NCBI GenBank assembly: GCA_017468055.1
Contig: JAFUJU010000022.1
Span: 1-47,959 of the forward strand
Origin: Elusimicrobiaceae bacterium
Lineage (GTDB): Bacteria > Elusimicrobiota > Elusimicrobia > Elusimicrobiales > Elusimicrobiaceae
Direction: 5' to 3'
DNA length: 47,959 nt
Part shown: positions 1 through 5,517 of the stretch, piece after piece
Layout of the letters: every line of letters starts with the position of its first letter
Numbering within the stretch: position 1 is the first letter of the stretch
Made by a program: the position numbers and the translations under genes
The notes under the pieces: generated by a model
What the model saw: the letters and a program-made list of their open reading frames with translations, nothing else
Database searches by the model: none
What the model was told of the DNA's origin: nothing

Positions 1-88
1 GTACGACAACTAATAGTTCAATCAGCGTGAAACCTGCAGAACGAGGACCACGCTTGGCCGGGTAGCCAAACTGTTTTTTCAAGTTCAT
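1..88 (-). CDS. Type IV pilin-like protein, N-terminus only (partial)
   Basis: Only the first 29 codons are in the window; the rest runs off the left edge. The reading starts at ATG 86-88 (minus) after a GGAGAATAAACT ribosome site. The first 18 residues form a long basic leader (MNLKKQFGYPAKRGPRSA), followed by G-FTLIELLVVV. This is the class III signal cut by prepilin peptidase between G and F, with Glu at mature position 5. The other four pilins here have only a 3-residue leader (MKKG or MKRG), so this one belongs to a different leader class, perhaps a main pilin or pseudopilin. It is preceded by the shared pilin promoter cassette at 199-253. Pilin identity is secure; its role is not determinable from the fragment. 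Confidence 0.85.
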   Translation of the reverse strand, partial: MNLKKQFGYPAKRGPRSAGFTLIELLVVV

Positions 89-515: not shown

Positions 516-1685
516 TTACAAATAAAGTTCCACTTGGTCTATCTGCTTTCCTTGGTCATTGTACACATAGACCGTCATCTTACGGTCCACTATTTTCACT
601 TCCGCAAAATGATGCCCCGCCACAAACCGCGCCGTAGAATGATGGCTTCCCATGCGCTTAGTCGGGCTTGCTCCACCGCCACCAAGGGTCATATATGTTA
701 CCCCGCGTTGGTTCGCCTCATCTGCTAACATGGGGAAAGTGCGCTCATAATTGGCCTCCGCCCCCTGTAGAACCAAATCTACCCCGTATTTTTCAAACAA
801 AGGCACCAAGCGAGACGCCGCTTCATTGGCTGGCCCTTTGGCCCCTGTGGAATACATGGGCGCATTGACCACCACTATTTTCCACTTTTCCGCCGCGCTG
901 GCCAACGTACTTTGCAACCATTTGTATTGAGTAGATTTTTCGTCAATATTCGGTGCCCACACAGCACCGTAGGCAGCATTGGCATCTAAGAAAATAAAGC
1001 GAGCATTGGCCGTATCAAAAAAGTAATATTTGGGGGTTGCATTGGACCAACTCATATCATGAAAGCGGGAATAATTGGTCCGCACAAAAGATTTACTTTC
1101 CCGTTCGGTCCGATCAGGGCCATATTCATTGGCACCCAAAGCAATAAACAAAGGGGTTTTGTCCAAGACCTCTTTATACGGGGTAAAAAATTCCGCATCG
1201 GCATCTTCATTGAGTCCGCTAGCGGTCAAATCGCCTGTATGAATAACAAAGTCTGCCTCTTTCTGCGCCATTTGGCTGGCCAGTAAAGCCTTGGGGCCGA
1301 TATTTTCACCGGCGGTATTACCAAAGGCTAAAAATTTTACTACCTTTCTTTCAGGGCTGAACAAGGTGCGAAAAGAACCCTCTATCGGTGCTTGCAGGCC
1401 GTCCTTGGCCGCATTGTATACGTACAAGCGATAACAAAAATCCTGATTAGGCACCAACCCATACAAAACGGCCTTATGTTGCGTACCTTCGGGGCTTATT
1501 TTCATAATTTGGTTACAGCGCGGGGCCGGCCCATACTCCAGCCAGGCCGGAGTGGACTCGTCCGTCTGCCAACGCAAAATCATCGTCGTTTGGGTAGGAT
1601 CCTCAATATAAGGGCCACGCACCACCTGCGCTGCATAAGATACTGCAGTCAACATCGTCAGTAAAACAGTAAATAAAATCTTCAT
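516..1685 (-). CDS. Secreted purple-acid-phosphatase-like protein with degenerate active site
   Basis: 389 aa. Signal peptide about 1-19 (cut after SYA). Residues ~21-108 are the fibronectin-like N-domain of purple acid phosphatases (VVRGPYIEDP, MILRWQTDES, WLEYG). Residues ~115-375 are a metallophosphoesterase fold. The usual metal-ligand motifs are altered: GD becomes FGN at 121-123, GNHE becomes GANE at 184-187, the HAP histidine is Asn274 (NAPMYS), and GHxHxYER becomes GAEANYER at 308-315. Only the GDL aspartate (D152) remains. The scaffold is intact, with no frameshift, so this is probably a binding or structural pseudo-enzyme rather than an active phosphatase. That is inference. The gene is single, probably leaderless (TAGAAT 7 nt before ATG), and divergent from the gene at 1768. 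Confidence 0.85.
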   Translation of the reverse strand: MKILFTVLLTMLTAVSYAAQVVRGPYIEDPTQTTMILRWQTDESTPAWLEYGPAPRCNQIMKISPEGTQHKAVLYGLVPNQDFCYRLYVYNAAKDGLQAPIEGSFRTLFSPERKVVKFLAFGNTAGENIGPKALLASQMAQKEADFVIHTGDLTASGLNEDADAEFFTPYKEVLDKTPLFIALGANEYGPDRTERESKSFVRTNYSRFHDMSWSNATPKYYFFDTANARFIFLDANAAYGAVWAPNIDEKSTQYKWLQSTLASAAEKWKIVVVNAPMYSTGAKGPANEAASRLVPLFEKYGVDLVLQGAEANYERTFPMLADEANQRGVTYMTLGGGGASPTKRMGSHHSTARFVAGHHFAEVKIVDRKMTVYVYNDQGKQIDQVELYL

Positions 1686-1767: not shown

Positions 1768-2649
1768 ATGAGAAAAACAATTCTTCTTTTTGCTTTATTT
1801 TTAGGTGCGCTGGGCGCACAGGCCTATACCGTAGATACGAAACTTTCGTACATCTACTCTTCCGAACATAACCAAGCCTTGGTAGGGGCGGCTGTACCTT
1901 TGGGTGTCAATACCGTCATCGGCCTGCAAGGAAAATATGTAGAAGACAAAAAAGAAAGCTTTTTAAAAGACAATACCTATTCCGTCTATTTGCCGTTACA
2001 ATTGGATTTAGATTTGGTAAATCTTCATTTAACGCCCTTTTATTACTTTAAAAATGAGCTTTTCACTCCCGGATTTGACGACATCTACGCTTACGGGTTA
2101 AACACACAACTGGTAATGAATTTGCAACAAAACGAAATTGATGAAACCTATACCCAGGCTTTTGTCGGCATTTCTTATGCACGGCAGAAAGGTGTGTTGG
2201 AAGAAAATTTCGTTTCCGATGACACACTCTTCACCCAGCTGGCCTATACTTTGGGAATCCGCCAAAACTTTTTTAATGCGTTTGCTTTTCAAGTGGCGGG
2301 CACCGCTTTCCATTATCCGGACGGCATCAGCGAAGTGAACTCTTTCCTCGGTGTGTTAAACCAAAATGATTTAGCCTATGTACAATCTTATGATGTGAAC
2401 CGGGAATTGGGCAAATATACCTTATCTGCCCGCATTACCCGTGTATGGGCAGAGGAACACTCCACCCTTTATTTTGGCTATCATTTTGCAGAGTTTTATA
2501 CCGCCGACCCCCAACATTCATTCTTATTGGGCAACAGTTTCCGCGTGGGAAAATACGCCACCGTGGATACCGCGTATAACCACCTGCGCAATACCGACGA
2601 TAAAGATAAACGGGATCTTTTCTTTATCAATTTAAATATTGCTTTCTAA
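1768..2649 (+). CDS. Outer-membrane beta-barrel protein, unknown function
   Basis: 293 aa. N-terminal signal peptide (MRKTILLFALFLGALGAQA, cut about 19/20). The mature protein is built of alternating aromatic/hydrophobic strands typical of a transmembrane beta-barrel (YTVDTKLSYIYSS, TVIGLQGKYVE, LHLTPFYYFKNELF, STLYFGYHFAEFYT) and ends in FINLNIAF, the C-terminal Phe signature recognised by BamA. I recognise no family. It is the first gene of an operon with a histidine kinase 9 bp downstream, an uncommon partnership. No Shine-Dalgarno is seen and the start is probably leaderless. Confidence 0.75.
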   Translation: MRKTILLFALFLGALGAQAYTVDTKLSYIYSSEHNQALVGAAVPLGVNTVIGLQGKYVEDKKESFLKDNTYSVYLPLQLDLDLVNLHLTPFYYFKNELFTPGFDDIYAYGLNTQLVMNLQQNEIDETYTQAFVGISYARQKGVLEENFVSDDTLFTQLAYTLGIRQNFFNAFAFQVAGTAFHYPDGISEVNSFLGVLNQNDLAYVQSYDVNRELGKYTLSARITRVWAEEHSTLYFGYHFAEFYTADPQHSFLLGNSFRVGKYATVDTAYNHLRNTDDKDKRDLFFINLNIAF

Positions 2650-2658
2650 GGGGGAAAT

Positions 2659-3426
2659 ATGGAAGAAAAAGAAAAAACTTCGTCTAACGAAAATAACACC
2701 CAAGACGCCGCTAAAATGCTTTCGTTGGTTTCTCACAAACTCAGAACGCCGCTTTCTATTATTAACGGATATTCTGAGGCTATTTTGTCTCAATCTGCCA
2801 AAGAAAAATTTTCTCCTTTTACCACCAAAGCTTTGGAAGAAATTAACAAGCAAGGCACTAAGCTGTGCGGTCTGGTGGATAAACTGATGTTTTTCAATAA
2901 AGTGGAAAATTTACAGCCGAAAGATTTGGCTAAGAAACACATTAATTTGAAAAACTTATTGAAGTTATGTGCCAATGATGCTATCTCCCACGAAGAGGAC
3001 TCCTCTACTGTCCCTTCCACTTCCGCCGTAGCCAAACGGGGCACGTTTATTGAAATAGATTGTCCGGCTAATTTGGAAATCAAAAGTGATGAAGAATTGA
3101 TGGCTTTTCTGTTGGAGGAGCTGATGGCCAATGCCATTAAGTTTAACAACAAAGCAGAAAAAGTGATTAAAGTGCAATGCGCCCACCACGGAGACAGTAT
3201 TTCTATTTCCGTGCGTGACTATGGGGCAGGCGTACGGCCGCAAGACGTCAATAAGATTTTTGAGCGTTTCTACCAAGTAGATGACTACTTTACCGGACAA
3301 ATTGACGGGTGGGGATTAGGCCTGCCTATGGTAAAGAAAATCTTAGACTTGCATGGCGGCAGTATCAGCGTTATCTCAGACAGAGGGCTGGGGACTATTT
3401 TCACCGTGAGCTTACCCGTAGCATGA
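2659..3426 (+). CDS. Soluble sensor histidine kinase
   Basis: 255 aa. HisKA dimerisation helix at ~15-75 with the phospho-accepting His in SHKLRTPLSIINGYSE. HATPase_c domain at ~125-253: N box (MANAIKFN), G1 (DYGAG), F box (FERFYQ) and G2 (GWGLGLPM). All catalytic boxes look intact. There is no transmembrane segment, PAS or periplasmic domain, so it is a cytoplasmic kinase core that must receive its signal from a partner. No response regulator is in the window. Preceded by GGGGAAAT. It overlaps the next gene by ATGA, so the pair is translationally coupled. The 167-aa downstream protein is a candidate partner (inference). Confidence 0.9.
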   Translation: MEEKEKTSSNENNTQDAAKMLSLVSHKLRTPLSIINGYSEAILSQSAKEKFSPFTTKALEEINKQGTKLCGLVDKLMFFNKVENLQPKDLAKKHINLKNLLKLCANDAISHEEDSSTVPSTSAVAKRGTFIEIDCPANLEIKSDEELMAFLLEELMANAIKFNNKAEKVIKVQCAHHGDSISISVRDYGAGVRPQDVNKIFERFYQVDDYFTGQIDGWGLGLPMVKKILDLHGGSISVISDRGLGTIFTVSLPVA

Positions 3427-3926
3427 ACCAAGTAGATTTACTGGAAGATATTTCCCAAAAAACGGATTTCCTGCGCAATACCGTCCTAAAAGAGGCGGCC
3501 GCTTTGCGGGATTTTACCCGTCGGTTGGAATTAATCTTAAGCCAAGACCACAAAAACATTCAAGTGCGCGATACGGATTTTGCGGCAGATTTCTCCGCCT
3601 TTTGCACGGCACTGCGCAAACTATTGGACCAACAATTAGATTTTTGGCAAGAAAACAGACTTTTGCTCAGACGGTGTGACTTGGCAGGGGATTATTCGCT
3701 TTCTTTGGCGGCCAAAACTTTCTCTTTGCGGGCCAAAACTCTTTCCCGCGCGGCCGATGATTTCACAACCGCTTATGACGGGTTTAATCGGTTTTATAAA
3801 AACTACACTCTGGAAAAATTACCTGTTTGGCTTTTAACTTCTTGCTGTGATGATTTGAACAACTTAACCGGAAAAATTTTGTTTTTGTCCAGAGAAACTG
3901 CCAAAAAAACAGGGGAGAACAAATAA
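3423..3926 (+). CDS. Helical protein of unknown function, coupled to the kinase
   Basis: 167 aa from the ATG of the ATGA overlap with the kinase stop. A longer in-frame start would lie deep inside the kinase gene. No signal peptide or membrane segment. The sequence is nearly all amphipathic helix (LLEDISQKTDFLRNTVLKEA, LRKLLDQQLDFWQENRLLLR). I recognise no domain. Overlap with the kinase gene upstream, and a 1-bp overlap with the permease gene downstream, imply co-translation. It could be a kinase-interacting four-helix bundle, but no HPt phospho-histidine motif is evident. Confidence 0.75.
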   Translation: MNQVDLLEDISQKTDFLRNTVLKEAAALRDFTRRLELILSQDHKNIQVRDTDFAADFSAFCTALRKLLDQQLDFWQENRLLLRRCDLAGDYSLSLAAKTFSLRAKTLSRAADDFTTAYDGFNRFYKNYTLEKLPVWLLTSCCDDLNNLTGKILFLSRETAKKTGENK

Positions 3927-4951
3927 TGGAAAAAGCTGAAAAAACAAACCGTTATTATCAACGAATGAATTTAATTTGTTTGACGATCATCGCCGCAGGG
4001 GTTATTACGGCTGGGCTTATTTACACGCGTGCTCTGATGATCCCGCTCGTCATTGCTATTTTTGCTTATACGGTACTGGGGCAGGCGGCGGCCGTTTTGC
4101 ACCGGAAATTTAATTTTCCGGTTTGGCTGGCCATTACCATTTCCATTCTGTTCTTTGTCTTGTGTTTTTCGGGAGTTATCTATTTTACAGTGAACTCCGT
4201 AGGAAGCTTTATTAAAGAAGCCGAAATGTACCGAGAAAACTTATTGGGTTCAGTGTCAGACTTGTTGAACAAATTAGCTGAGCGTGGCATAGAGCTGGAC
4301 CGCCATTCCATTATGAACTACTTAAAAGATTTGCCGCTTTTTGCGTGGTTTAAAAACTTTGGACGCCAGCTTTTCTCGCTCTTATCTAATGCCACGTTGA
4401 TTATTTTGTTTATTATTTTCTTATTATTGGGAGAAAAGAAAGTCCTGACGGCCCCGTCCAACAAAACCCTACAGGAAATGTTAGCCAATATTTCCAAATA
4501 TTTATCTGTTAAAGTCAGTACCTCTTTAGTTACGGCTTTGATCGTGTGGCTGATTTTAGTTTTCTTCCAAGTCAAAATGGCCTTCTTGTTCGGACTGTTA
4601 ACATTTTTGTTAAACTTTATTCCCAGTGTAGGGTCTATTATTGCTGTATTATTGCCCGCTCCGGTGCTTTTTTTGCAATACGGGGCAGGGGCTAACTTTT
4701 TTGTGGTATTGGGACTAATGACAGCCACCCAATTCACTATCGGAAATCTAATAGAACCCCGCATGATGGGTGACGGTATGGATTTACACCCCGTGGTGGT
4801 TATTGCTTCCTTAATCTTTTGGAGTTTGGTGTGGGGCGTGCCGGGAGCTTTCTTATCTGTACCTATCACCGCTTCCATTAAAATTGTACTTAGTAAAATG
4901 AAACATACGCGTCCCGCTGCAGAACTTTTGGCCGGCAGACTTCCGCAATAA
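3926..4951 (+). CDS. AI-2E family transporter (PerM/YdiK-like permease)
   Basis: 341 aa, normal length for the family. Membrane segments at about 14-60 (a pair), 65-90, 150-170 and a C-terminal group of about four (200-320). The amphipathic stretch between the second and third groups is typical of AI-2E_transport proteins. Family-like motifs include FLLNFIPSVGSIIAVLLP and the C-terminal GNLIEPRMMGDGMDLHPVVV. Members are inner-membrane permeases of varied or unproven substrates, including Na+/H+ exchange, so the AI-2 name should not be taken literally. Last gene of the operon, followed by the terminator at 4958. Confidence 0.88.
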   Translation: MEKAEKTNRYYQRMNLICLTIIAAGVITAGLIYTRALMIPLVIAIFAYTVLGQAAAVLHRKFNFPVWLAITISILFFVLCFSGVIYFTVNSVGSFIKEAEMYRENLLGSVSDLLNKLAERGIELDRHSIMNYLKDLPLFAWFKNFGRQLFSLLSNATLIILFIIFLLLGEKKVLTAPSNKTLQEMLANISKYLSVKVSTSLVTALIVWLILVFFQVKMAFLFGLLTFLLNFIPSVGSIIAVLLPAPVLFLQYGAGANFFVVLGLMTATQFTIGNLIEPRMMGDGMDLHPVVVIASLIFWSLVWGVPGAFLSVPITASIKIVLSKMKHTRPAAELLAGRLPQ

Positions 4952-5007: not shown

Positions 5008-5517
5008 TTACATCCAATAACTCTTTTCATCTTTTTGTTCCTTCCCCAAAGACTTGCAAAGGCCCAAACTGCGTTCATCTGCCATAGAAGCATAGCAAAA
5101 AGTACGGCCGGCATCACTCGCGTCAGATATATGGTCAAAAAATGTTTCTATATTAATGCTAAGCGAAGAAGAGGATATTTGGGTATAAATACGTCCATCT
5201 ACTCCTGGGCGCGATCCATTTTGACAACTAATAACAATAGAATAACTCCCTTTTTGCAAACGATACGAAGATTCTCCTGTATCCAAAATAAATCCGGATG
5301 GCAAATCCGCACCTATTTCTTCACACGTTTCTCCATAATAACCATTAGCCATATAAAAAACTTCTTGTTGAGTCTTTAAGTTTTTTAAAATAGGAAGCAA
5401 CTCAGTTACTCGTGCTTTATCTACTGCCTTCGTATACTGTGGCAAAGACACCGCAGACAAAATACCAATAATTAACACCACTACTAAGAGTTCTATTAAT
5501 GTAAAACCTCTTTTCAT
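5008..5517 (-). CDS. Type IV pilin-like protein
   Basis: 169 aa. Starts MKRG-FTLIELLVVVLIIGI: a short leader, prepilin peptidase site G4/F5, Glu at mature +5 and the hydrophobic alpha-1 helix, then SAVSLPQYTKAVDKAR. The remaining ~120 residues are a unique globular head with Cys in GETCEE, ISCQNG, TFCYAS and GLCKSL that may form disulfides. Ribosome site AAAGGAG. The gene is a single unit with the promoter cassette at 5557-5610 and a terminator at 4958-4982. No pilus assembly genes (pilB, pilC, pilQ, pilD) are nearby, so the machinery must be encoded elsewhere. Confidence 0.93.
   Translation of the reverse strand: MKRGFTLIELLVVVLIIGILSAVSLPQYTKAVDKARVTELLPILKNLKTQQEVFYMANGYYGETCEEIGADLPSGFILDTGESSYRLQKGSYSIVISCQNGSRPGVDGRIYTQISSSSLSINIETFFDHISDASDAGRTFCYASMADERSLGLCKSLGKEQKDEKSYWM

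What the first reader, a model, noticed from the sequence alone, without database searches (positions are those of the whole stretch)
516..1685. Purple-acid-phosphatase fold with nearly all metal ligands replaced
The N-domain and the surrounding scaffold are conserved, yet five of the expected metal-ligand positions are substituted: D to N at FGN 123, N to A at 185, H to N at 274, and both histidines of GHxHxYER to A (309, 311). Only D152 of GDL and the YER tail remain. No frameshift or stop is present and the signal peptide is intact, so the protein is likely made and exported. Loss at the metal sites while flanking motifs persist points to selection for a non-catalytic role, such as binding phosphorylated or glycosylated ligands.
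Basis: partly seen in the sequence, partly recalled or inferred. Interest (0 to 1): 0.66.

Follow-up and report, generated by a model that had tools for sequence, protein, structure and literature searches.

The report
Family-wide metal-less phosphatase-fold protein
A protein that gut bacteria of the family Elusimicrobiaceae export looks exactly like a purple acid phosphatase but has lost the residues that hold its metals, and the whole family keeps it under strong selection, so it has probably become a structural or binding protein and is no longer an enzyme.

Summary
The 389-aa ORF (516-1685, minus strand) has a signal peptide, a fibronectin-like N-domain and a metallophosphoesterase domain. 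AlphaFold gives pLDDT 93, and Foldseek's best matches are plant purple acid phosphatases (PAPs). Five of the six metal-ligand positions kept by its intact relatives are substituted, and so is the substrate histidine (N186). The seventh PAP ligand, the chromophore tyrosine, is absent even from intact relatives.

This is not recent decay. The gene is in 87/90 Elusimicrobiaceae genomes and in 51/51 of those at least 90% complete. Every complete copy keeps only 0-3 of seven active-site residues, and dN/dS is about 0.03-0.11. Orthologues in the sister family of the same order mostly keep all seven (23/24 in the intact set), so catalysis was ancestral. Some sister-family lineages have also lost them. 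The tree needs at least two independent losses, probably four or more.

The ligand positions drift in the degenerate copies, while 62 other ancestral residues stay fixed and new ones have become fixed. I therefore favour an exported non-catalytic scaffold or adaptor over a phospho-ligand binder using the old pocket. The best candidate partner is the outer-membrane barrel encoded divergently next door (1768-2649). That pairing is an inference.

The parts
516..1685 (-). Degenerate purple-acid-phosphatase-like exported protein, 389 aa (P0001)
   Evidence: ORF; Pfam Metallophos E 8e-10; AF2 pLDDT 93.1, pTM 0.90; Foldseek to plant PAPs E 1e-27 to 1e-25
1629..1685 (-). Signal peptide, aa 1-19 (MKILFTVLLTMLTAVSYAA), by inspection
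   Evidence: Hydrophobic N-terminus with small residues before the predicted cleavage, conserved in character in orthologues; no signal-peptide program was run
1362..1628 (-). Fibronectin-III-like N-domain, aa 20-108
   Evidence: PF16656 E 2.6e-5, below the curated cut-off; monobody/FN3 matches; all-beta in the model
519..1343 (-). Metallophosphoesterase-fold domain, aa 115-389
   Evidence: PF00149, fold search
1317..1319 (-). N123 in place of metal ligand Asp135 (kidney-bean numbering)
1230..1232 (-). D152, the retained bridging Asp164; Asn in 58/81 family members
1128..1133 (-). A185-N186 in place of Asn201-His202
864..866 (-). N274 in place of His286
753..761 (-). A309-E310-A311 in place of His323-x-His325
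1768..2649 (+). Order-wide outer-membrane beta-barrel protein of unknown family, divergent neighbour (82 bp gap); candidate partner
   Evidence: AF2 pLDDT 90.7, all-beta barrel topology; Foldseek to OmpG/FadL barrels; present in 51/51 complete family genomes
2659..3426 (+). Histidine kinase (HisKA + HATPase_c), in the block with the barrel gene
   Evidence: synteny
3309..3926 (+). Conserved protein of unknown family; the true start is probably later (orthologues are about 170 aa)
3926..4951 (+). AI-2E family transporter, end of the syntenic block
   Evidence: PF01594 E 2e-45; synteny

Best explanation
It is an exported pseudoenzyme derived from a two-domain bacterial PAP-like phosphoesterase. 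The order's ancestor had an intact two-metal site; in the sister family the gene is coupled to adenine deaminase. In Elusimicrobiaceae the metal ligands were lost before the family diversified, but the folded protein was kept and stays under strong purifying selection. It most likely works as a non-catalytic scaffold or adaptor in the cell envelope, through surfaces of the N-domain and of the phosphoesterase domain and not through the old pocket. Its most likely partner is the outer-membrane barrel encoded divergently next to it. Shown: fold, loss of ligands, age of the loss, selection, synteny. Inferred: absence of activity, location, scaffold role, partner (the barrel specifically about 0.25).
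For: Gene in 87/90 family genomes and 51/51 of those at least 90% complete, in all six genera, always an open frame. All 80 family rows scorable at all seven positions keep 0-3 of the seven residues, 42 keep none. 23 of 24 in the intact sister-family set are exactly DDNHHHH, and class-level outgroups are intact too, so loss is derived. Pairwise dN/dS 0.03-0.11 within the family. 62 of 138 positions conserved in intact relatives stay at least 90% fixed (R23-Y26, W48, C57, C84, W256, Y313-R315 and others), while no ligand does. About 45 positions are at least 90% fixed in the family but not fixed to the same residue in intact relatives, many of them in the N-domain and the 211-217 loop, for example E50, H70, N80, Q98, W213, T217, E298. 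Model pLDDT 93.1 with full PAP fold, TM 0.72-0.78 to plant PAPs. The barrel gene is divergently adjacent in all but 8 of about 74 family genomes examined, is equally universal, and shows the highest partial correlation of evolutionary distance with the PAP among the four neighbours (0.47).
Against: No biochemistry. VPS29 still binds metal weakly although inactive (PMC3101248), so some metal binding with alternative residues cannot be excluded. The barrel link is indirect: adjacency is lost in some lineages (genera g3, g4 and parts of g5), the barrel is not adjacent in the sister family, and a partial correlation of 0.47 on non-independent pairs is weak. Envelope location rests on an N-terminus read by eye.
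Confidence: 0.62

Rival explanations
1. It is a ligand-binding pseudoenzyme: the emptied active site became a neutral, asparagine-rich pocket that binds an uncharged polar ligand such as a sugar or nucleoside, or an anion through other residues.
For: Four of the seven sites are mostly Asn in the family (123: 49/81, 152: 58/81, 186: 57/81, 274: 58/80) against 5% Asn overall; sites 152 and 274 take almost only D/N and H/N. The surrounding motifs YER, YG and YSxG are kept.
Against: Positions 185, 309 and 311 vary widely between species (P/A/E..., G/A/H..., A/G/P...), unlike a conserved pocket. D-to-N and H-to-N are single-base changes, and D-to-N also occurs at non-ligand sites (80, 159, 303), so mutation bias may explain the Asn. 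Genus g5 has a different pattern (NDEEHHG, NNEDHHG).
Confidence: 0.18
2. It is still a metallohydrolase, using migrated or fewer ligands (a single metal site or other residues).
For: H149, D224, D234, N236 and H209 stay nearly fixed; pseudoenzymes with migrated catalytic residues are known (PMC10211241 abstract).
Against: The well-conserved D and H positions in the family (145, 149, 209, 224, 234, 359, 383) are equally conserved in intact relatives, so they look like scaffold residues and not replacements. Few new His, Asp, Glu or Cys positions reached 90% fixation (E50, H70, E112, E187, E298, D367), and most are outside the active-site motifs.
Confidence: 0.1
3. It is a decaying remnant in shrinking host-associated genomes, with relaxed selection on the way to loss.
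For: Family genomes are small (about 0.9-2.3 Mb) and adenine deaminase, its operon partner in the sister family, is absent from 8 of 9 family genomes tested. Ligand columns drift.
Against: dN/dS 0.03-0.11; no internal stop in any copy and presence in 51/51 near-complete genomes; in G015 (no match) and G026 (fragment) the barrel gene lies at a contig end or is itself truncated, which points to assembly breaks.
Confidence: 0.05

Closest known systems
Plant purple acid phosphatases (kidney bean PAP 4dhl/2qfp, lupin PPD1 3zk4)
   Same: Two-domain architecture and fold (Foldseek E 1e-26 to 1e-27, TM 0.72-0.78); flanking motifs YER, PxYS and GxxxYG
   Different: Five metal ligands substituted plus the Tyr ligand absent; His202 lost; about 17% identity; bacterial and exported
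Plasmodium GAP50 (3tgh)
   Same: PAP-fold protein that serves as a membrane-complex anchor (PMC8949495); detected by the family profile (E 5e-8) and by fold (E 3e-15)
   Different: Apicomplexan, membrane-anchored in the glideosome; no bacterial N-domain; an acid phosphatase activity has been reported for it
VPS29 of retromer
   Same: Metallophosphoesterase fold turned into a metal-independent rigid scaffold (PMC3101248)
   Different: Cytosolic, eukaryotic, single domain, different branch of the superfamily (TM to query 0.31-0.33)
Intact Elusimicrobiales orthologues (sister family f2)
   Same: Orthologous, about 38-43% identical, same length and architecture
   Different: Keep D-D-N-H-H-H-H; most are translationally coupled to adenine deaminase instead of divergent from the barrel gene

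Membership tests
Purple acid phosphatase (enzyme) | Two-domain PAP fold (FN3-like N-domain + metallophosphoesterase) | tested here: met
   PF16656 sub-threshold and PF00149 above cut-off
Purple acid phosphatase (enzyme) | Seven invariant metal ligands (Asp135, Asp164, Tyr167, Asn201, His286, His323, His325; PMC2267794) | tested here: not met
   Only Asp164 is retained (D152)
Purple acid phosphatase (enzyme) | Tyr ligand giving the purple colour | tested here: not met
   A155 here; also not Tyr in intact relatives
Purple acid phosphatase (enzyme) | Binuclear metal content and acid phosphatase activity | not testable with these tools
   needs purified protein
Metallophosphoesterase superfamily by descent (Pfam PF00149) | Profile match above the curated cut-off | tested here: met
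   39.9 bits against a cut-off of 21.5; 54 of 55 family members match at E <= 0.001
Pseudoenzyme | Conserved catalytic motifs lost while the fold is kept | tested here: met
Pseudoenzyme | Gene maintained by selection | tested here: met
   dN/dS 0.03-0.11; 51/51 near-complete genomes
Pseudoenzyme | Measured absence of activity | not testable with these tools
   no assay

The most novel reading that the evidence does not exclude
Across a bacterial order, a secreted PAP-like enzyme lost catalysis several times independently while the protein was always kept. This would mean the ancestral, still-catalytic protein already had a second, essential non-catalytic job in the envelope, probably with the order-wide outer-membrane barrel, which became its genomic neighbour in the family where the enzyme died.
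Probability: 0.3. Interest if true: 0.65.

Novelty: new variant of a known kind. Interest (0 to 1): 0.5.

Why it matters
Inactive metallophosphoesterase folds are, to my knowledge, best known from eukaryotes (VPS29; GAP50 as a PAP-fold anchor). A bacterial, exported, family-wide case with intact orthologues one family away and repeated losses gives a clean before-and-after comparison for asking what an enzyme scaffold does once catalysis is gone. Automatic annotation would call these proteins phosphoesterases (Pfam PF00149 passes its cut-off), so phosphate-acquisition capacity of gut Elusimicrobiaceae would be over-predicted.

Tried and rejected
Recent decay or pseudogene: rejected by purifying selection and universality. 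Chance mis-alignment of motifs: rejected by the family profile aligned to kidney-bean PAP and by the intact orthologues in the same alignment. A replacement intact copy in the same genome: a search of the own genome with the protein finds only this gene. Five other PF00149 hits exist; none was returned by the protein search, and they were not examined further. A single loss for all degenerate copies: the tree needs 3 changes and L139 is nested in an intact genus, AU p = 0.053. Holding all degenerate rows except L139 together is not rejected (p = 0.26), so the safe claim is at least two losses. Link between ligand loss and loss of adenine deaminase: rejected, since degenerate copies in f2 genera g8, g12, g14 and g15 and the g10 genome G177 still sit next to the deaminase gene. 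Promoter scan of the divergent spacer: no more sites than in shuffles. Literature searches for pseudoenzyme with purple acid phosphatase or with metallophosphoesterase: no paper in the held library. The GAP50 structure paper is not held. Model coordinates are not exposed to scripts, so the newly fixed residues could not be mapped on the surface.

Full report
WHAT IS THERE. The ORF at 516-1685 (minus) encodes 389 aa with an apparent signal peptide. Pfam finds Metallophos (39.9 bits, cut-off 21.5) and, below its cut-off, the PAP N-terminal domain. AlphaFold with a 55-sequence alignment gives pLDDT 93.1 and pTM 0.90. The best solved structures are plant PAPs: lupin PPD1 TM 0.78, kidney bean 0.72-0.74. 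A profile of the family aligned with kidney-bean PAP places N123, D152, A185, N186, N274, A309 and A311 at Asp135, Asp164, Asn201, His202, His286, His323 and His325. PMC2267794 lists these as metal ligands, except His202, a conserved second-sphere histidine that holds substrate. The remaining PAP ligand, Tyr167, falls at A155 and is not Tyr in the intact relatives either.

THE GENOME. The window is contig C11 of a 1.3-Mb assembly of the family Elusimicrobiaceae. The nearest public relatives are gut MAGs titled Elusimicrobiaceae or Elusimicrobium. One family genome (G067, one contig of 1,643,562 bases) is probably E. minutum, judged from my memory of its size.

IS IT RECENT DECAY? No. The gene is in 87 of 90 family genomes, 51 of 51 near-complete ones, in all six genera and with no internal stops, and in 87 of 89 near-complete genomes of the order. 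All 80 scorable family rows keep 0-3 of the seven residues; 42 keep none. In the intact sister-family set, 23 of 24 are exactly D-D-N-H-H-H-H and the other has one change. Class-level outgroups are also intact. Pairwise dN/dS is 0.03-0.11 (synonymous sites are near saturation for the more distant pairs, so those values are rough, but pairs with dS 0.5-0.8 give the same range).

HOW MANY LOSSES? A careful tree without the ligand columns needs three changes of state, and its well-supported branches force three. Degenerate copies occur in Elusimicrobiaceae and, within f2, in genera g12 (EGSSHHR), g8 and g14 (for example NNPQNGS, ANERHGG), and one genome of the otherwise intact genus g10 (L139, GDLSNQR). 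A partial g15 copy (L152) also lacks the ligands it covers. Holding all degenerate rows together gives AU p = 0.053; without L139, p = 0.26. If seven residues cannot be regained together, the tree as drawn implies at least four losses; the conservative statement is two.

WHAT IS SELECTED? Of 138 positions conserved in intact relatives, 62 remain at least 90% fixed in the family, but none of the seven ligand positions does. Ligand columns have entropy 0.86-2.39 bits against a median of 0.33 elsewhere (p = 0.002). About 45 positions are newly or more strongly fixed in the family, many in the N-domain (E50, P53, H70, N80, Q98, E112-R113-K114) and around 211-217. The selected function has therefore probably moved away from the old active site. 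The Asn enrichment at four sites leaves room for a neutral ligand pocket, but single-base mutation explains it as well.

NEIGHBOURHOOD. In Elusimicrobiaceae the gene is divergent from a block: an outer-membrane barrel, a histidine kinase, a small unknown protein and an AI-2E transporter. The barrel is divergently adjacent in all but 8 of about 74 genomes examined (read; the ninth locus without it, L077, is cut by a contig end). The barrel is itself universal in the family (51/51) and present in 87 of 89 near-complete genomes of the order, but not next to the PAP gene in f2 (the six 'f2' adjacent loci counted are L114-L119, which belong to f1). Its model is a confident beta-barrel (pLDDT 90.7) resembling OmpG and FadL barrels. 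Among four neighbours its distances show the highest partial correlation with those of the PAP (0.47). In f2 the gene instead lies directly downstream of adenine deaminase, usually with a 4-base stop/start overlap, whether its ligands are intact or lost. Adenine deaminase is absent from 8 of 9 family genomes tested.

READING. The protein is a long-established, selected pseudoenzyme, apparently exported to the envelope. Work by analogy with VPS29 (metal-independent scaffold, PMC3101248) and GAP50 (PAP-fold membrane anchor, PMC8949495) is likely; membership in the enzyme family 'purple acid phosphatase' fails on its ligand criterion. Shown: fold, loss, age, selection, synteny. Inferred: no activity, envelope location, scaffold role, partner.

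Noticed in passing
f2 loci, e.g. L136:3181-4983 with L136:4980-6152: In the sister family the PAP gene is translationally coupled to adenine deaminase (TIGR01178), usually with a 4-base overlap, also where the PAP is degenerate; suggests an ancestral link to purine salvage or simply shared transcription.
   Followed up: partly
1768-2649 (+): Outer-membrane beta-barrel without a significant Pfam or NCBIfam match, present in 87 of 89 near-complete genomes of the order Elusimicrobiales; apparently an undescribed core outer-membrane protein.
   Followed up: partly
3309-3926 (+): Small conserved protein of no clear family between the histidine kinase and the AI-2E transporter, conserved in synteny across genera.
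   Followed up: no
L139:5028-6197 (-), genome G177: A single degenerate PAP nested among intact ones of the same genus (GDLSNQR): an apparently independent and younger loss, useful for timing selection after loss.
   Followed up: partly
L160 (two matches, minus strand): Two tandem intact PAP paralogues in genome G260, which lacks a strong match to the order-wide orthologue.
   Followed up: no
1-85 (-) and 5008-5517 (-): Type IV pilin-like N-termini (GFTLIEL...) on either side of the locus.
   Followed up: no
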